Assembly (NCBI GenBank): GCA_019873655.1
Contig: JAIOAU010000021.1
Coordinates: forward strand, 1 to 51,330
Reading direction: 5' to 3'
DNA: 51,330 nt
DNA from: Chloroflexota bacterium
Lineage (GTDB): Bacteria > Chloroflexota > Anaerolineae > Anaerolineales > Villigracilaceae
Part shown: in pieces, positions 1-11,948 of the stretch
How positions within the stretch are numbered: the first letter of the stretch is position 1
Layout of the letters: every line of letters starts with the position of its first letter
The notes under the pieces: generated by a model
Database searches by the model: none
The model's input: only the letters and a program-made list of their open reading frames with translations
What the model was told of the DNA's origin: nothing
Position numbers and translations under genes: made by a program

Positions 1-74
1 TCAGGATGAAAGTGTTCCAAAATCCAGCGTTCACTTTCTTCTGCGCTCAGGAGGTCGGTGATCGGAAATTCCAT
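1..74 (-). CDS. N-terminus of a probable transposase, running off the left edge
   Basis: On the minus strand an ATG at 74-72 opens a frame that stays open to the window edge (24 codons). It begins MEFPITDLLSAEES and continues RWILEHFHP. This resembles, from memory, the start of zinc-ribbon transposases such as the IS1595-like group, where a short acidic helix is followed by a Cys-x2-Cys ribbon. The ribbon itself would lie outside the window. A -10-like TACACT lies 6 nt upstream of the ATG. Reading away from the retroelement, it suggests an insertion that separated the RT core from its tail. The family call is tentative. Confidence 0.45.
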   Translation of the reverse strand, partial: MEFPITDLLSAEESERWILEHFHP

Positions 75-434
75 GCCTATAGTGTACCATCACTCTTTCT
101 CAAGATGAGCCAAGAACAATTATGGGAATGGCGCGCCGCCATCCTGCAGCGCCTGGCGAAGTTTCGGCTGACCATCCATGAAGACTCGGCCTTGCCCAAA
201 CCGGTGGAAACAGGCATCCCTTTCCTCGGTTTTGTGGTCTATCCGTATCAGCGTCTTTTGAAGAGGCGCAAAGGAATCGCCTATTGCCGCCGGTTGAAGC
301 GACTGCTGAGGTCAGGACGGCCTGTTAAGCCTTCCATCCAGGGCTGGATTAATCACGTCCGCTATGGGAATACCTTTGGCCTGCGGAAGGCTGTCCTGGC
401 TCGTTTCGACCTGCTGGAGGATGCAAATGGCTGA
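6..434 (+). CDS. DGR reverse transcriptase, C-terminal fragment
   Basis: The frame is open to the left edge, so this is only the end of a gene. From about residue 35 it reads like the post-catalytic part of DGR-type reverse transcriptases: an LWEWR helix, RLTIHEDSALPKP, the GIPFLGFVVYP segment (the 'FLG' element after the palm), a basic RRLKRLL stretch, and a WINHVRYGNTFGLR thumb segment. The YxDD catalytic box should lie just before residue 30. Instead the sequence there is unrelated and overlaps the promoter and start of the minus-strand transposase-like gene. The fragment therefore lacks the palm, and the apparent ATG at 6 is probably not a real start. The RT may continue beyond an insertion, or it may be dead. 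The frame overlaps the start of the Avd gene, as expected for a co-transcribed pair. Confidence 0.72.
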   Translation: MKVFQNPAFTFFCAQEVGDRKFHAYSVPSLFLKMSQEQLWEWRAAILQRLAKFRLTIHEDSALPKPVETGIPFLGFVVYPYQRLLKRRKGIAYCRRLKRLLRSGRPVKPSIQGWINHVRYGNTFGLRKAVLARFDLLEDANG

Positions 435-777
435 GGAGATGGTCATCTTTACCAGAACGTATGATTTCCTGACCTGGCTGCTTCCCTTGACGGAAGATTT
501 TCCCAAAAGCCAGCGTTTCGTGGTGACGGCGCGCTTGCAGGGCGCGGCGCTGGATTTTCAGGAGCGCATCATCGAGGCCAACGCCAAGCCCGGCAAATGG
601 AAACTCGACAAACTGCGCGAAGCCGATGCGGAACTGCTCAAAGTCCGCCTCTATCTTCGCCTGTGCGAACGCTGGGAGTGGCTGAAACCCGGTCAATACA
701 AACATGCCTCCGAGATGGTCGCTGAACTTGGGCGCTTACTGGGAGGCTGGATAAAATCTGTCACCTCCGAGCCGTGA
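427..777 (+). CDS. avd: Avd-like four-helix-bundle protein (DGR accessory)
   Basis: Predicted 116 aa, all helical by eye, with basic and amphipathic stretches ([37 protein letters not shown], ending GGWIKSV). This matches the small four-helix-bundle family (bAvd/TIGR02436-like) that binds template RNA and RT in DGRs. The start at 427 is chosen because GGAGG at 416-420 sits 6 nt before it. The ATG at 421 is too close to that site. The gene overlaps the RT stop (434), implying translational coupling, and is followed at once by the template repeat. The same fold occurs as 23S rRNA intervening-sequence proteins, but the TR next door favours the DGR role. Confidence 0.78.
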
Positions 778-799
778 TTGGCTCGTGTGAAGGGCCTGC

Positions 800-935
800 C
801 CGAAAGAGACGCGTTTTGCGCGGCGGTTCGTTCAACAATAATCGCAGGAACGCGCGCTGCGCGTATCGCAACAACAACAATCCCGACAACCGCAACGACA
901 ACATCGGTTTTCGTGTGTGCGTCTCTCACACCTCT
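800..935 (+). repeat. DGR template repeat (TR)
   Basis: In the frame starting at 810 the segment reads [41 protein letters not shown]. That is the usual C-terminal strand set of FGE-sulfatase/C-type-lectin variable domains in DGR targets. Eleven Asn codons (AAC or AAT, at 834, 837, 840, 849, 870, 873, 876, 879, 888, 894 and 900) concentrate adenines in codons that can mutate widely without giving stops. No long domain precedes it and no start or RBS serves it, so it is a template and not the expressed variable copy. A small hairpin (GCAGC/GCTGC, 957-971) lies just downstream. The exact edges cannot be fixed without the matching variable repeat. Confidence 0.8.
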
Positions 936-1046
936 TGGGTATGCCGGAAATGCGGCGCAGCGATGAGCTGCTCCGCCGAGGCCTTTAGGAGATGGCGCGG
1001 GCAGCGTCCTGGCCGAGTCGTCTTGCCGCCGGCCATATACAAACAT

Positions 1047-1088
1047 CTCCCGCGGCCTGGATTCGCTCCCGCCGCGGGAGGCCTTTTT
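1047..1088 (+). terminator. Rho-independent terminator after the template repeat
   Basis: A perfect 10-bp stem, CTCCCGCGGC (1047-1056) and GCCGCGGGAG (1071-1080), has a 14-nt loop and is followed by GCCTTTTT. It would end the RT-avd-TR transcript and define the 3' end of the template RNA. Confidence 0.8.
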
Positions 1089-1240
1089 ACTTCTTACTCT
1101 TCACTTTTCACTTCTCACTCCTCTCTTCTCACTTCTCTCTCCTCACTCCTCACTTCTCACTCCTCTCTTCTCACTTCTCTCTCCTCACTCCTCACTTCTC
1201 CCCTCTCCCTTCTCCCTTCTCACTCCTCACTCCCTTCGTG
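1088..1240. repeat. Polypyrimidine tandem repeat, with a 42-bp perfect duplication
   Basis: The plus strand is almost wholly C/T with sparse A, built from CACTTCTCACTCCTC-like words. A 42-bp unit at 1109-1150 is repeated without change at 1151-1192 and then degenerates. The tract fills the gap between the DGR terminator and queA. Such strand asymmetry can favour triplex DNA and replication slippage. No gene is supported here. Confidence 0.85.
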
Positions 1241-1241
1241 T

Positions 1242-1247
1242 TAAAAT
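1242..1247 (+). promoter_or_regulatory. -10 box of a probable leaderless queA promoter
   Basis: TAAAAT ends 7 nt before the queA ATG at 1255, so transcription would start at or next to the start codon. There is no Shine-Dalgarno sequence in the gap. The -35 region falls in the polypyrimidine repeat and is not recognisable. Confidence 0.55.
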
Positions 1248-1254
1248 TCCCCCA

Positions 1255-2298
1255 ATGAAAACCTCCGACTTCGACTACGCCCTCCCTCCCGAATGCATTG
1301 CCCAGACCCCGGTCGAACCGCGCGACTCCTCGCGCCTCCTCGTCCTGACACGTGACACGGGAACACTGGAACACTCGATCTTCCGCAACATTGGCAATTA
1401 TCTTAAACCTGGCGATTTACTCGTTCTGAACCAGACCCGCGTCATCCCTGCCCGTCTCTTCGCCCGCAAGCCGACCGGCGGCCGCGTCGAACTCCTGCTC
1501 CTGCGCAAGCGCGACGACCTGACCTGGGAGGCGCTGGTGGGGGGCAAAGGATTGCGTGTAGCCAGTAAAGTAAAAATCGAGGAGGGGCCGGAGGCCGAAA
1601 TCCTCGAAATCCTGAACGGGGCCGAGCGCCTCGTCCGCTTTGCCGAACCCATCGAGCCATATTTCCCCAGGGTCGGCCACGTCCCGCTCCCGCCCTACAT
1701 CCACGAAAAACTGGACGACCCCGAACGCTATCAGACCGTCTACGCCCGCGAACCCGGCTCCGCCGCCGCGCCGACCGCCGGTCTGCACTTCACCCCGCGC
1801 CTGCTGGATGAACTCCAGGCGCAGGGTGTCCGTCTGGGCTGGGTCACCCTGCACGTCGGGCTGGACACCTTCGCCCCCGTCACCGAAGATGACCCCGCCG
1901 AACACAAAATCCACACCGAGTGGTGCGAACTCCCGCCGGAGACCGCCGACCTCATCAACCAGACCCGCGCCCGGGGCGGGCGGGTGATTGCCGTCGGCAC
2001 CACCTCCGTCCGCACGCTGGAGAGCGCCGCCTCACTGAACACTGAACACCGACCACTGAACACTGAACACTGTTCACTGCTCACTGCCTTCACCGGCCCC
2101 ACCTCCCTCTACATCCTCCCCGGTTACCAGTTCAAAGTCGTGGACGCGATGATTACCAATTTCCATTTGCCCAAATCCACCCTGCTTATGCTGGTCAGCG
2201 CCTTTGCCGGGCGGGAGACCATCCTCCACGCCTACGAAGTTGCCAAACGGGAAGGCTACCGCTTCTACTCCTTCGGCGACGCGATGTTAATTTTGTAA
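1255..2298 (+). CDS. queA: S-adenosylmethionine:tRNA ribosyltransferase-isomerase QueA
   Basis: 347 aa, normal length. QueA transfers and isomerises the ribosyl group of SAM onto preQ1 in tRNA to give epoxyqueuosine. Family signatures are clear: N-terminal [26 protein letters not shown] near residue 60, [13 protein letters not shown] in the middle, [10 protein letters not shown] near 245, and [20 protein letters not shown] near the end. Between VRTLESAA and the TSLYILPGY strand the usual short variable loop is replaced by a low-complexity stretch encoded by a CACTGAA repeat (2031-2087). The frame stays open, so the enzyme is probably functional. Confidence 0.96.
2031..2087 (+). repeat. In-frame ACTGAACAC repeat inside queA
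   Basis: Words of CACTGAA, ACTGAACAC and TTCACTGC repeat over about 57 bp and encode the low-complexity SLNTEH/PLNTEH/SLLTA stretch. The same vocabulary recurs inside the uracil-DNA glycosylase gene (5185-5219). This suggests a mobile or slippage-prone repeat family tolerated in surface loops. Confidence 0.8.
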
Positions 2299-4643: not shown

Positions 4644-5324
4644 ATGCGCCTCGACGACCTGAACGCCGACCTGCTGACCTGCCGCCGCTGTCCGCGCCTG
4701 GTGGAATGGCGCGAGCGCGTCGCCCGCGAGAAGCGCCGCGCCTACCGCGACTGGGACTACTGGGGCAGGCCCGTCCCTGGCTTCGGCGACCCGGCCGCGC
4801 GCGTGCTGGCCGTCGGCCTGGCCCCCGGCGCGCACGGCTCCAACCGGACCGGACGCATGTTCACCGGCGACGCCTCGGGCGACTTCCTCTACCCGGCGCT
4901 CCACCGCGCCGGATTCGCCAGCCGGCCCGATTCGACCTCCCGCGGCGACGGCCTGACCCTGCGCGGACTCTACATCACCGCCGTCTGCCGCTGCGCCCCG
5001 CCCGGCAACAAGCCCGCGCCGGACGAAATCCGCAACTGCCTGCCGTATCTGCGCGCCGAAATCGAACTCCTGCGCCCCAGGGTCTTCGTCGCTCTCGGGC
5101 GGATTGCCTTCGATGCGCTCAAGTCCCTGCTCGGCGCGCCCGCCGCCTGGACCTTTGCCCACGGCGCCCTCTACCGCCTGACCGCTCACTGGTCACTGAA
5201 CACTGAAAACTGGTTACTATGCTCTTATCATCCCAGCCGCCAGAACACCCAGACCGGCCGCCTGACCCCCGAAATGTTCGATGACATCTGGACGAAAGCG
5301 CGTCAATTGATGATTGAACCCTGA
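4644..5324 (+). CDS. Family 5 (UdgB-type) uracil-DNA glycosylase
   Basis: 226 aa. It removes uracil and related deaminated bases from DNA. The N-terminal CRRCPRLVEWR supplies two of the Fe-S cluster cysteines, and later cysteines (CRCAPPGN and NCLPYL) could supply the others. Motif A is GLAPGAHGSNRTGR and motif B is HPSRQNTQTGR. Both are typical of family 5, where Ala replaces the catalytic polar residue of other families. Just before motif B lies a short low-complexity insert encoded by a CACTGAA repeat (5185-5219). Adjacent genes are unrelated, so it is probably monocistronic. Confidence 0.93.
   Translation: MRLDDLNADLLTCRRCPRLVEWRERVAREKRRAYRDWDYWGRPVPGFGDPAARVLAVGLAPGAHGSNRTGRMFTGDASGDFLYPALHRAGFASRPDSTSRGDGLTLRGLYITAVCRCAPPGNKPAPDEIRNCLPYLRAEIELLRPRVFVALGRIAFDALKSLLGAPAAWTFAHGALYRLTAHWSLNTENWLLCSYHPSRQNTQTGRLTPEMFDDIWTKARQLMIEP
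5185..5219 (+). repeat. In-frame CACTGAA repeat inside the uracil-DNA glycosylase gene
   Basis: CTCACTGG, TCACTGAA, CACTGAAAACTGG words encode HWSLNTENW directly before the conserved CSYHPSRQN motif. The sequence family is the same as in queA (2031-2087). Confidence 0.7.
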
Positions 5325-5327
5325 TTC

Positions 5328-5360
5328 TGCTGTTTATCTGTGTAATCTGTGTAATCTGTG
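5328..5360 (+). repeat. Short repeat of ATCTGTGTA words
   Basis: TTTATCTGTGTAATC, TGTGTAATC and TGTGGCGG form two and a half copies of an approximately 10-bp word between the glycosylase gene and the S51-like gene. No gene is seen in the short gap. Confidence 0.6.
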
Positions 5361-9041: not shown

Positions 9042-11948
9042 ATGGCCAAAGTATCCTTGCGCGTATACAACCGCGAAATCGAAAATCTAATCGAGAGCGG
9101 GCAAATTGACGAGGCGCTGGCCCACTGCTTCCACATTTTGAAAACCTTCCCCATGCACCTAGAGACCTATCGCCTGCTGGGCAAGGCGTTTCTGGAAGCG
9201 CGCCGCTACGGCGATGCGGCCGACATCTTCCAGCGCATCCTGATGGCTGTGCCCGATGACTTCGTCGCCCACGTGGGGATGAGCATCATCCGCGACGACG
9301 AGGGCAAACTGGACGAGGCCATCTGGCACATGGAGCGGGCCTTCGAAGTCCAGCCCTCCAATCCGGCCATTCAGGGCGAGTTGCGCCGCCTGTACGGCCG
9401 CCGCGACGGCGTCGAGCCGCCCAAAATCCGCCTCAGCCGCGATGCCCTGGCGAACATGTACGCTCAGGGGGAACTGTTCAACCAGGCGATCGCCGAGATC
9501 CGGGCCGTGCTGGCCGAAGACCCGAACCGCCCCGACCTGGAGGTGATGCTGGCGCGGGCCTACTATCGCGGCGGCCACAAGGTCGAGGCGGCCGAGATGG
9601 CCACCAATCTGCTCAAGAAATATCCCTATTGCCTCGACGCCCTGCGTATTTTGGTAGACGTCTTGCCGGGCACTTCTCAGGCCGAGAACACTCAGCCGTA
9701 TCGGCAGCGGGTGCGCATGCTCGACCCCTATTCGGCTTTTGCGGCTGGGTCGTTGTTCGACTCCGACAAGGTCGCCGATGCAGCGGTCAGCCTGGAACGC
9801 CTGGCTTATGATTCGAGCGCCCGGCCGCCCAGTCAGGCCGAATGGGCGGCGTCGCTGGGCATCAAACTCGAAGAGGAGAAACGCCCCGAATCCCTGCCAG
9901 ACTGGTTGAGCGCGGGGGGAGCGGCGTCGCTGACAGCCGGCGCGGCGGCTTCCATCGAAGAAACGCCTGCGCCCCAGCCGGCTGCTCCCCCGCCCGAACC
10001 GTCCGCCGAAATCCCCGACTGGCTGCGCTCGGCTGGCTGGAGCGAGGCGACCGGCGCGGCCGAGGAGCAACCGGCTGCTTTCGAAGAGCCGGAGGCGATC
10101 GCTCCCGGCGAAGTGCCCGATTGGTTGAAGAGCATGGCTCCCCAGGGAGTGCTGGATGAAGGCGCTACGCCTCCGGCTGGCCTGCCGGCCGAGACCGGAC
10201 AGCCGCTTGCCGAGGGACTTCCCGACTGGTTGAGCGCCGAAAGCGGCGGGATGGCCGAGACAGCGCCGGCCCCAGAGGCGGCCGCGAGCCTTCCCGACTG
10301 GCTGCAGTCCTCCGAGCCGCCTGCCGCGCCGCCGTCCGCCGAAGAGGCCCTTCCCTCCTGGCTGGGCGAGGCGAGCGCCGCGCCTGCCGATTCTCAACCG
10401 GATTCCTTGCCGGCCGGGCCGGAAGAAGTCCTTCCCGATTGGCTGCAAGGAACGTCGCAGCCTGCGGCGGCTCCGGTCGAAGAGGCAGCTCCGGCGGCGG
10501 AACAAGGCCCAGCAGCCGTTGGTCCAACCGGCCCGGCGCGTCCGCTGGAAATCGAAGATGACGCCCTGGCCTGGCTGGAGAGTCTGGCCGCCAAACAGGG
10601 CGCCAATCCGGAAGAGTTGCTTTCCAAGCCCGAACAGCGCATAGAAGCGCCGCCCGAATCGGTTCAGCGCCTGGCGGCCTCGCAGGAGACTCCGCCTCCG
10701 CCGCCGCCCGCAGAGCAAAAGGCGGTCTCGGTGGAGGAGACCGGCCCTGTCGCCGGTCCGACCGGCCCGGCGCGTCCGCTGGAAATCGAGGATGACGCCC
10801 TGGCCTGGCTGGAGAGCCTGGCCGCCAAACAGGGCGCCAATCCGGAAGAATTGCTTTCCAAACCCGAACAACGTCTGGAGACGCCGCCCGAGTCGGTCCA
10901 GCGCCTGGCCGAGGCGGCCCAGTCGGTCCAGCGCCTGGCCGAGGCGGCCCAGACGCCGGTCGAGCCGCCGCCCGCCCCCGAAACTCCGCTCTCTGCCGCC
11001 CAACCCGCGGAAGAGGACGTCTCGGTGACCGGTTGGTTGCGCTCGTTGGAGAAGAGCGAGGCGGTGGAAGAAACCGCAGAGCCTGCGCCGGCGGCCGAAG
11101 GACCCTTGCCCGACTGGCTGCGCGATCTAGAGCGTCCGGCTGAATCGCCGTCTGCTGCGCCGACGGCCGAGGAACCCCTGCCCGACTGGCTGGCCGGGGC
11201 GACTGCGCCGCCGCCCGCCGAGGCCGCGCCTGCGCCGGCGGCTGAAGAACCCCTGCCCGATTGGCTGGCCGGGGCGACCGCGCCGCCGCCCGCCGAGGCC
11301 GCGCCTGCGCCGGCGGCCGGGGAACCTCTGCCCGACTGGCTGGCCGAGGCGACCGCGCCGCCGCCCGCCGAGGCCGTGCCCGCGCCGGTGGCCGAGGAGC
11401 CTCTGCCCGACTGGCTGGCCGAGGCGACCGCGCCGCCGCCTGCCGAGGCCGCGCCTGCGCCAGCGGCCGAGGAGCCTCTGCCCGATTGGTTTGCCGATGC
11501 CGCCGCGCCGGTGGCTCCAGATGCTGGGCCGGTGGCCCCCGATGAATGGGTGCCGGCCGCGCCTCCGGCGGCCGAGGCGGTGCAGCCTCCTCCCATTGCC
11601 GAGGCGGTGCAGCCGCCTCCTCTGCCCGCCTCGACGCCGGTGCCGACTCAGTCGCGCGTGACCGGTATGCTGGCGCGCGTCCCCTCGCAGGACAAAGACG
11701 CCGAAATCTTGGCCGCCGCGCAGAGGGCGCTCGAGCGAAACCTGCTCGACGAAGCGATGGGAGAGTATTCCAAACTCATCAAAAAGGCTCGCCTCCTGGA
11801 CGAAGTCATCCACGACCTGCGCGAAGCCATCTACCGTTTCCCGGTGGACATTATCGTCTGGCAGACGCTGGGAGACGCTTACATGCGCGCCAACCGTCTC
11901 CAGGAAGCGCTGGACGCCTACACCAAAGCGGAGGAACTCCTGCGCTGA
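9042..11948 (+). CDS. Large TPR protein with a Pro/Ala linker of repeated LPDWL motifs
   Basis: 968 aa, no signal peptide or membrane segment. Residues 1-about 240 form TPR repeats (IDEALAHCFHILKTFP, GDAADIFQRILMAVP, LDEAIWHMERAFEVQP and others), and the last about 70 residues return to TPR (LDEAMGEYSKLIKKA, LQEALDAYTKAEELL). Between them lies about 650 aa of Pro/Ala/Glu-rich sequence carrying some 13 [LIV]P[DS]W[LF] motifs. A 25-residue unit (EEPLPDWLAGATAPPPAE...) occurs in tandem from nt 11169 to about 11505. A 52-residue block (EIEDDALAWLESLAAKQG) is duplicated at 10521 and 10755. The regular Trp-Leu motifs in a disordered chain suggest many identical docking sites. The function is unknown. 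Confidence 0.85.
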   Translation: MAKVSLRVYNREIENLIESGQIDEALAHCFHILKTFPMHLETYRLLGKAFLEARRYGDAADIFQRILMAVPDDFVAHVGMSIIRDDEGKLDEAIWHMERAFEVQPSNPAIQGELRRLYGRRDGVEPPKIRLSRDALANMYAQGELFNQAIAEIRAVLAEDPNRPDLEVMLARAYYRGGHKVEAAEMATNLLKKYPYCLDALRILVDVLPGTSQAENTQPYRQRVRMLDPYSAFAAGSLFDSDKVADAAVSLERLAYDSSARPPSQAEWAASLGIKLEEEKRPESLPDWLSAGGAASLTAGAAASIEETPAPQPAAPPPEPSAEIPDWLRSAGWSEATGAAEEQPAAFEEPEAIAPGEVPDWLKSMAPQGVLDEGATPPAGLPAETGQPLAEGLPDWLSAESGGMAETAPAPEAAASLPDWLQSSEPPAAPPSAEEALPSWLGEASAAPADSQPDSLPAGPEEVLPDWLQGTSQPAAAPVEEAAPAAEQGPAAVGPTGPARPLEIEDDALAWLESLAAKQGANPEELLSKPEQRIEAPPESVQRLAASQETPPPPPPAEQKAVSVEETGPVAGPTGPARPLEIEDDALAWLESLAAKQGANPEELLSKPEQRLETPPESVQRLAEAAQSVQRLAEAAQTPVEPPPAPETPLSAAQPAEEDVSVTGWLRSLEKSEAVEETAEPAPAAEGPLPDWLRDLERPAESPSAAPTAEEPLPDWLAGATAPPPAEAAPAPAAEEPLPDWLAGATAPPPAEAAPAPAAGEPLPDWLAEATAPPPAEAVPAPVAEEPLPDWLAEATAPPPAEAAPAPAAEEPLPDWFADAAAPVAPDAGPVAPDEWVPAAPPAAEAVQPPPIAEAVQPPPLPASTPVPTQSRVTGMLARVPSQDKDAEILAAAQRALERNLLDEAMGEYSKLIKKARLLDEVIHDLREAIYRFPVDIIVWQTLGDAYMRANRLQEALDAYTKAEELLR
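11169..11505 (+). repeat. 75-bp coding tandem repeat in the TPR/LPDWL gene
   Basis: Units begin at 11169, 11244, 11319, 11394 and 11469, exactly 75 bp (25 codons) apart, and encode EEPLPDWL plus a Pro/Ala spacer. Copies are near identical, implying recent expansion or gene conversion. Confidence 0.85.

What the first reader, a model, noticed from the sequence alone, without database searches (positions are those of the whole stretch)
1..1088. Partial diversity-generating retroelement at the left edge
An RT tail, an overlapping Avd-like gene and an Asn-codon-rich template repeat occur in this order, ending in a strong terminator. The template reads as the end of an FGE-sulfatase/lectin variable domain. 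DGRs diversify surface or signalling proteins by adenine-specific mutagenesis. The RT-avd-TR order differs from the avd-TR-RT layout of the best-known phage example.
Basis: partly seen in the sequence, partly recalled or inferred. Interest (0 to 1): 0.85.

Follow-up and report, generated by a model that had tools for sequence, protein, structure and literature searches.

The report
Diversity-generating retroelement cut by transposon
This is a bacterial machine that rewrites one of the cell's own sensor-like proteins at random; in this genome a jumping gene has cut its only reverse transcriptase in two, and its RNA template carries a conserved folded tail that also occurs next to templates with no reverse transcriptase of their own.

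Summary
The finding is a genuine DGR, and it can be completed. Window 112-1088 holds the RT 3' part, avd, the TR and a structured RNA. The missing half ends contig C14: a TIR+FGE target gene with the VR, then the RT 5' part. Window 1-111 is not RT but the end of an IS1595-family element. It split the RT just after YVDD, leaving an 8-bp duplication that pairs C14 with C21. TR and VR differ at 13 of 121 sites, all TR adenines (P=7e-10). No other RT of this kind was found, so this genotype is probably switched off. An IS-split DGR RT has a published precedent; RT-avd-TR is common among relatives.

Less expected: the "terminator" is the last hairpin of a four-helix RNA (941-1081) with covariation support and no Rfam match. 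A model from 14 relatives finds it just 3' of the TR in 45 of 55 held-out loci, in all three main gene orders. It also exposed cassettes with VR, TR and this RNA but no RT or avd nearby, one in this genome (C26). Service in trans is inferred, not shown.

The parts
1..111 (.). Right end of an IS1595-family insertion sequence (terminal inverted repeat 91-111); not RT
   Evidence: Same stretch at the ends of nine other contigs; 20 of the first 22 terminal positions match the left end on C14; DDE_Tnp_IS1595 E 1.2e-16 in the C1 copy
112..119 (.). 8-bp target-site duplication AAGAACAA (other copy at the C14 end)
112..434 (+). 3' part of the DGR reverse transcriptase gene; with the IS and one duplication left out it is in frame with C14:70079-70804 (346-aa RT)
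427..777 (+). avd, accessory variability determinant
   Evidence: PF22296 E 1.3e-20; phrog_3206 E 3.7e-26; NF033474 98.7 bits
810..930 (+). Template repeat (TR); VR partner is C14:69908-70028
   Evidence: 13 of 13 mismatches at TR adenines
928..928 (+). TR A where the VR has C: perhaps a fixed IMH*/IMH difference rather than mutagenesis
   Evidence: A/C difference in a CA context near the 3' end in 59 of 68 TR/VR pairs
941..1081 (+).
   Evidence: no Rfam match
1084..1088 (+). T5 run after the last hairpin; possible transcript end
   Evidence: sequence

Best explanation
A chromosomal DGR of a Chloroflexota (probably Anaerolineales) bacterium, order TIR-FGE target (VR), RT, avd, TR, spacer-type RNA. 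SHOWN by sequence: all parts exist, TR and VR differ only at template adenines, and an IS1595-family element has inserted into the RT shortly after the YVDD catalytic motif with an 8-bp duplication, which is why the locus is split over two contigs. INFERRED from the BPP-1 model: the TR transcript carries the conserved RNA, which holds RT-Avd and starts cDNA synthesis; adenines are copied with errors; the cDNA replaces the VR, so the FGE (C-type-lectin-type) end of a TIR protein, plausibly a defence sensor, keeps changing. INFERRED: the assembled genotype can no longer do this, because the RT is cut after YVDD and no second RT of this kind was found. The absence of any mismatch at the 92 non-adenine sites suggests that the break is recent.
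For: RT halves abut in the RT profile and re-join in frame. Seven contig pairs, C14/C21 among them, match one to one by their 8-bp duplications. Apart from the two RT halves the own genome has only one E 0.16 match to the RT profile. A-specific TR/VR differences. Target TIR_2 E 3.3e-26 and FGE E 5.8e-55; the FGE part also matches Treponema denticola variable protein 1 (2y3c, E 3.5e-9; that this is a DGR target is recalled). The RT profile's best solved relative is 8ub7, E 8.4e-66 (that this is the BPP-1 complex is recalled). 29 of 92 non-redundant loci (ours included) share the order, and our RT sits in a clade of 16 rows that all have RT before avd (100/99).
Against: No reads were available: cells with an intact RT may coexist, as published for Thiohalocapsa DGR 3 (PMC10907252, section 7 read). 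The adjacency of C14 and C21 rests on the duplication, the reading frame and the profile, not on a spanning contig; the empty site is in no contig either. The function of the TIR-FGE protein is inferred from domains only. Of the two other genomes of the genus neither has the RT at E <= 1e-30; G055 has a short fragment match (RT residues 2-44, E 4.6e-6) and G056 none at 1e-5, so there is no close intact relative.
Confidence: 0.93

Rival explanations
1. The DGR is still active in the population: the IS insertion is polymorphic and the assembly kept the interrupted allele, or an RT is supplied in trans.
For: Published coexistence of intact and transposon-interrupted RT alleles at Thiohalocapsa DGR 3 (PMC10907252, section 7 read). 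No mismatch at the 92 non-adenine sites of TR and VR.
Against: No empty-site contig in the assembly; no other RT of this family in a genome given as 99.82% complete.
Confidence: 0.3
2. The conserved 3' hairpin region is only an intrinsic terminator plus chance similarity, not a functional RNA.
For: In the window it does end in a GC-rich hairpin and T5.
Against: 17 of 29 pairs show two-sided changes and 93.1% of cells pair, against 77.3% shuffled and at most 48.5% slid. MAFFT plus RNAalifold on 20 held-out sequences finds the same four helices, 24 of 27 pairs with two-sided changes. It also lies upstream of RT genes, and only 10 of 43 loci have a T-run after it.
Confidence: 0.03
3. The RT-less cassettes (C26 here and relatives) are dead remnants rather than units served in trans.
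For: Four RT-less loci carry RT remnants (L264, L269, L275, L283). G033 and G081 have RT-less cassettes, and their only RT-profile matches are a weak partial one (E 2.3e-19, in a 607-aa frame) and a remnant. L271 has several non-adenine differences between TR and VR. In this genome the only RT is itself broken.
Against: VR-TR-RNA cassettes with no detected RT remnant in G044, G048 and G029 show 16/0, 18/1 and 12/0 adenine/non-adenine differences, and these genomes hold a longer DGR-type RT elsewhere (G044 to residue 296, at a contig edge; G048 and G029 nearly whole).
Confidence: 0.4
4. The window's RT tail belongs to a group II intron or an anti-phage RT, not a DGR.
For: The RT 5' part also matches group II intron (below cut-off) and PADLOC RT/UG models.
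Against: phrog_1423, an adjacent Avd over its curated cut-off, and TR/VR with adenine-only differences.
Confidence: 0.01

Closest known systems
Bordetella phage BPP-1 DGR (NC_005357)
   Same: RT, Avd, TR, VR, adenine mutagenesis; a structured spacer RNA 3' of the TR that recruits bRT-Avd (PMC12875486, passages)
   Different: Order VR-avd-TR-RT in BPP-1, VR-RT-avd-TR here; phage-borne there, chromosomal here; models R1 and R2 give no match spanning the BPP-1 TR-brt spacer, so homology of the two RNAs is not shown
DGRs of multicellular bacteria with conflict-system targets (Thiohalocapsa PB-PSB1 and relatives; PMC10907252, section 7 and passages)
   Same: Cellular DGRs, CLec/FGE targets with TIR, NTPase and other effector domains; transposon-interrupted RT; proposed diversification in trans
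   Different: Here a TIR+FGE protein, an IS1595-family insertion with a mapped 8-bp duplication, and a second cassette with its own TR and RNA but no RT; in the passages I read the trans cases were targets matching another locus's TR
Cyanobacterial DGRs (PMC7517822, passages)
   Same: Multidomain variable proteins, including TIR-like domains; transposases near DGRs; a degraded RT-only remnant
   Different: The passages I read give no RNA consensus structure; other parts of the paper were not read
IS1595 family
   Same: DDE_Tnp_IS1595 domain over its cut-off, matched inverted repeats, 8-bp duplications (that 8 bp is usual for the family is recalled)
   Different: Zinc-ribbon match is under its cut-off (18.1 of 25.4 bits); in the C1 copy the transposase is in two overlapping ORFs

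Membership tests
Diversity-generating retroelement | DGR-type reverse transcriptase with catalytic YVDD | tested here: met
   phrog_1423 E 2.4e-89 and 1.4e-13 for the two halves; RVT_1; YVDD in the C14 half
Diversity-generating retroelement | Intact RT in this genotype | tested here: not met
   Split by an IS1595-family element after YVDD; this bears on activity, so the locus is filed as a DGR that is probably inactive
Diversity-generating retroelement | TR and VR differing essentially only at TR adenines | tested here: met
   13 of 13 mismatches at A, P=6.9e-10
Diversity-generating retroelement | Accessory protein Avd | tested here: met
   NF033474 98.7 bits, cut-off 80
Diversity-generating retroelement | VR in the C-terminal part of a C-type-lectin/FGE-type target | tested here: met
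   FGE-sulfatase E 5.8e-55; changed residues 392-423 of 425; by sequence only, no fold was predicted
Diversity-generating retroelement | Mutagenic retrohoming | not testable with these tools
   needs reads or an assay
BPP-1 spacer RNA | Recognisable by the same covariance model | tested here: not met
   No match spanning L258 2743-2886 (-) with R1 or R2, filters off; only a 24-nt R1 fragment at E 5.7 lies there. Analogous function is not excluded
IS1595 family | DDE_Tnp_IS1595 transposase, inverted repeats, 8-bp duplication | tested here: met
   PF12762 61.5 bits, cut-off 27. NF033547 67.2 bits is under its cut-off of 75

The most novel reading that the evidence does not exclude
The RNA 3' of the TR is the portable core of these DGRs: a conserved four-helix RNA, kept next to the TR across gene orders, that recruits RT-Avd. 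Because it is portable, cassettes of only target, TR and this RNA exist as non-autonomous DGRs served by a helper RT elsewhere in the genome. In this genome one IS insertion into the only RT would then have silenced two receptors at once, the TIR-FGE and a KAP NTPase-FGE protein on C26.
Probability: 0.5. Interest if true: 0.78.

Novelty: new member of a known kind. Interest (0 to 1): 0.55.

Why it matters
DGRs are a known route by which bacteria and phages hypermutate a chosen protein. Here (1) the locus is a natural knock-out with mapped junctions, so cells with and without the insertion could be compared; (2) a consensus RNA with covariation gives a search model that finds the TR end without needing the RT and suggests where RT-Avd bind; (3) RT-less cassettes with their own TR make the question whether one RT serves several templates directly testable.

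Tried and rejected
Window-only repeat search for a VR (the 20 largest families shown): none seen; the VR is on C14. C20:3866 match: an FGE paralogue whose differences are not confined to A (sequence, compared by eye), rejected as a VR. A 51-nt TR pattern with A as N, up to 3 mismatches, in the own genome: only the TR and the C14 VR. Rfam: no match for window 700-1260 at E <= 1; nine relatives at E <= 0.1 gave only a tRNA. First RT tree contained a wrongly translated row (L080) and two wrong labels (L106, L129); redone, where L127, L130 and L152 were excluded (a stop in the matched stretch, or too few motifs) and the bootstrap had not settled. BPP-1 spacer: no full match with R1 or R2. Viral loci (72 of the 80 kept were searched): 9 matches at E <= 1 with R1 and 10 with R2, mostly weak and 5' of the RT; only L178 is strong with R2. 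Synteny with the genus-mates: queA (and in L175 the neighbouring gene) found, but none of five C14 flank genes on these loci of 2.2-4.0 kb; not pursued. One paper search was badly framed and returned general RNA papers. On a conserved DGR RNA I searched, on trans action; [quoted passage not shown] I saw no cross-family consensus, in this open-licence library only; the primary BPP-1 structure papers were not read. PMC8144416 was looked at in passages and not used.

Full report
WHAT IS IN THE WINDOW. Window 1-1088 is the left end of contig C21 of a 3.04-Mb, 45-contig genome. An RT remnant, an avd overlapping it by 8 nt, an Asn-rich template and a hairpin with T5 follow each other. Avd is confirmed (PF22296 E 1.3e-20; NF033474 98.7 bits with cut-off 80). 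The 143-aa open frame at 3-434 matches no Pfam family, but window 111-431 matches the DGR RT family phrog_1423 at positions 332-438.

THE FIRST 111 BASES ARE A TRANSPOSON END. The first 36-46 codons of the apparent RT tail match the ends of nine other contigs (C29, C35, C32, C26, C12, C38, C24, C25, and the start of C1) at 91-100% identity. They end in CACTCTTTCTCAAGATGAGCC, the partner of GGCTCATCTGTAGAAAGAGTG at the end of C14. A copy on C1:1-971 carries a DDE_Tnp_IS1595 domain (E 1.2e-16, over its cut-off; NF033547 67.2 bits is below its cut-off of 75). Each of the six left ends printed is flanked by an 8-mer found at one right end: C42/C38, C37/C35, C27/C24, C7/C29, C2/C12 and C14/C21 (AAGAACAA; C21); C1/C32 is a seventh pair. 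The C11 left end and the C26 right end remained unpaired and the C25 junction was not inspected.

THE OTHER HALF OF THE DGR. A search with window 760-1000 found one strong match elsewhere in the genome, C14:69908-70032 (89%), and the only RVT_1 match of the genome is C14:70277-70810. C14 ends with a target gene, the VR, then the RT 5' part. The target is TIR_2 (E 3.3e-26) plus FGE-sulfatase (E 5.8e-55). Leaving out the IS and one duplication gives a 346-aa RT in frame, the IS lying shortly after YVDD; the two halves occupy adjacent parts of the RT profile, 101-333 and 332-438. TR 810-930 and VR 69908-70028 differ at 13 of 121 sites, all TR adenines (29 A; P=6.9e-10), all non-synonymous. One of the 13 (A928/C) may be a fixed IMH*/IMH difference, because an A/C difference in that context recurs in 59 of 68 TR/VR pairs. 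Besides the two RT halves the assembly has only an E 0.16 match to the RT profile. No contig carries the empty site.

HOW IT WORKED AND WHY IT IS PROBABLY OFF. By the BPP-1 model (PMC12875486, passages) the spacer RNA 3' of the TR recruits RT-Avd and primes cDNA; adenines are miscopied; cDNA replaces the VR. Here this would vary the end of a TIR protein; TIR and similar effectors with variable CLec/FGE domains are known DGR targets (PMC10907252, passages). The 242-residue RT remnant stops soon after YVDD, so the assembled genotype is inferred inactive. A transposon-interrupted DGR RT coexisting with intact alleles is published for Thiohalocapsa (PMC10907252, section 7 read), so polymorphism is a live alternative.

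GENE ORDER IS ORDINARY. 42 of 152 genomes of the family (own included) carry this RT at E <= 1e-30. On the RT tree of 89 rows our sequence sits in a clade of 16, all RT before avd (100/99). A survey describes 122 cassette patterns of TR, VR and RT, clustering on the RT tree (PMC6642488, passages).

THE CONSERVED RNA. In 14 of the 16 clade members a stretch of 135-181 nt after the TR shares GCC(A/G)GAAAT, CGAGG, GATGGC, CCNGNC and ATA blocks around four helices. I set the boundaries with my own motif search, so the 14 are not independent of that choice; L080 and L083 were not used. RNAalifold: 17 of 29 pairs with two-sided changes; 93.1% of cells paired against 77.3% in shuffles (0 of 500 as high) and at most 48.5% when slid. 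Model R1 was run on 82 sources, of which 78 are DGR loci not used to build it; 69 of these 78 had a match at E <= 0.1. Of the 55 of them with a detected TR, 45 had a match on the TR strand starting -10 to +80 nt from the TR end (median 21): 16 of 16 VR-avd-TR-RT, 14 of 16 VR-RT-avd-TR, 10 of 15 VR-TR-avd(rev)-RT, 5 of 8 others. The ten misses: six have a match 86-190 nt downstream (L155 a partial one), L156 has one elsewhere, L117 is cut by the contig end, L152 and L159 have none. Twenty held-out sequences, chosen and bounded by R1 matches, aligned by sequence alone and folded anew gave the same helices, 24 of 27 pairs with two-sided changes. Records named Chloroflexota, Deltaproteobacteria, Nitrosomonas, Rhizobium, Bacteroidales, Nitrospirales, Bryobacterales and Poribacteria are among the matched loci; most are MAGs and may be misbinned. 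No Rfam match: window 700-1260 at E <= 1, and nine relatives at E <= 0.1 except a tRNA. Against a wider claim: R1 and R2 find no full match at the BPP-1 spacer, and of 72 viral loci only L178 matches strongly (E 1.8e-13 with R2).

RNA WITHOUT AN RT. R1 over the 152 family genomes: 47 have a match at E <= 1e-3; with the RT in 32, RNA only 15, RT only 10, neither 95 (Fisher p 3.9e-13; weak matches may be lost by that call's filters). One RNA place without an RT is in this very genome, C26:22684-22871 (E 6.1e-21). There a KAP_NTPase (E 3e-40) plus FGE (E 7.6e-59) protein ends in a VR, followed by its own TR and the RNA, with no RT or avd in the 12 kb read. TR and VR there differ at 15 adenines and 1 other site over 88 nt, and at 7 adenines over the next 45 nt on a diagonal shifted by 3 nt. 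Of the 78 RNA places I read 26 that had no RT match beside them; 11 further ones, all at E 2.1e-5 or weaker, were not read. The 26: VR-TR-RNA with no RT or avd found, 5 (L259, L267, L268, L271, L276); FGE and RNA but no TR/VR found, 1 (L270); avd but no RT, 3 (L261, L272, L273); RT remnants, 4 (L264, L269, L275, L283); contig edge, so undecided, 8 (L260, L265, L266, L274, L277, L278, L279, L281); no DGR part found, 5 (L262, L263, L280, L282, L284). Adenine/non-adenine differences where a pair was found: L267 16/0, L268 18/1, L276 12/0, L273 17/0, L261 10/0, L264 18/0, L272 8/1, L271 5/2 and 8/2 in two pieces. G044, G048, G008 and G029 hold a longer RT elsewhere: G044 to residue 296 at a contig edge; the G008 and G048 matches contain one TGA, but the slightly shorter matches to the same genes contain none. 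G033 and G081 hold no such RT. TATAAT occurs about 40 nt upstream of the TR in L267, L268 and L271 but not in L259 or L276. I read this as: some cassettes are probably served in trans, others are decaying. This is inference.

LIMITS. No reads, expression or activity data. E-values of R1 and R2 come from shortened calibration. The unnamed family genomes overlap with the named GTDB records. The host is called Chloroflexota/Anaerolineales because same-family records are so named; its own record was not listed.

Noticed in passing
G000:C26:22684-22871 (L259 3128-5871): Second DGR-type cassette in the same genome: KAP NTPase-FGE target with VR, its own TR and the conserved RNA, no RT or avd found nearby.
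   Followed up: partly
L267, L268, L271, L276: Similar RT-less VR-TR-RNA cassettes in relatives, three (L267, L268, L276) with TIR-FGE targets; TATAAT about 40 nt upstream of the TR in L267, L268 and L271.
   Followed up: partly
L261 3781-5865 (G033): A target 73% identical to this one (TIR-FGE) sits in a locus with avd, TR and RNA but no RT, in a 4-contig genome.
   Followed up: partly
window 928 and relatives: TR has A and VR has C near the 3' end in 59 of 68 pairs, perhaps the base that tells IMH* from IMH.
   Followed up: partly
L069 38-968 (G000:C1): The IS1595-family transposase of the C1 copy lies in two overlapping ORFs; programmed frameshift or a broken copy.
   Followed up: no
window 1083-1247: Pyrimidine-rich repeats with 21-nt spacing between the DGR and queA.
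   Followed up: no
window 11080-11604: 75-nt tandem repeats inside a 968-aa open frame (9042-11948).
   Followed up: no
L262 (G081:C211), RNA at about 5203-5354: Strong RNA match (E 1.6e-20) with no TR/VR pair, FGE, avd or RT found within about 5 kb.
   Followed up: no
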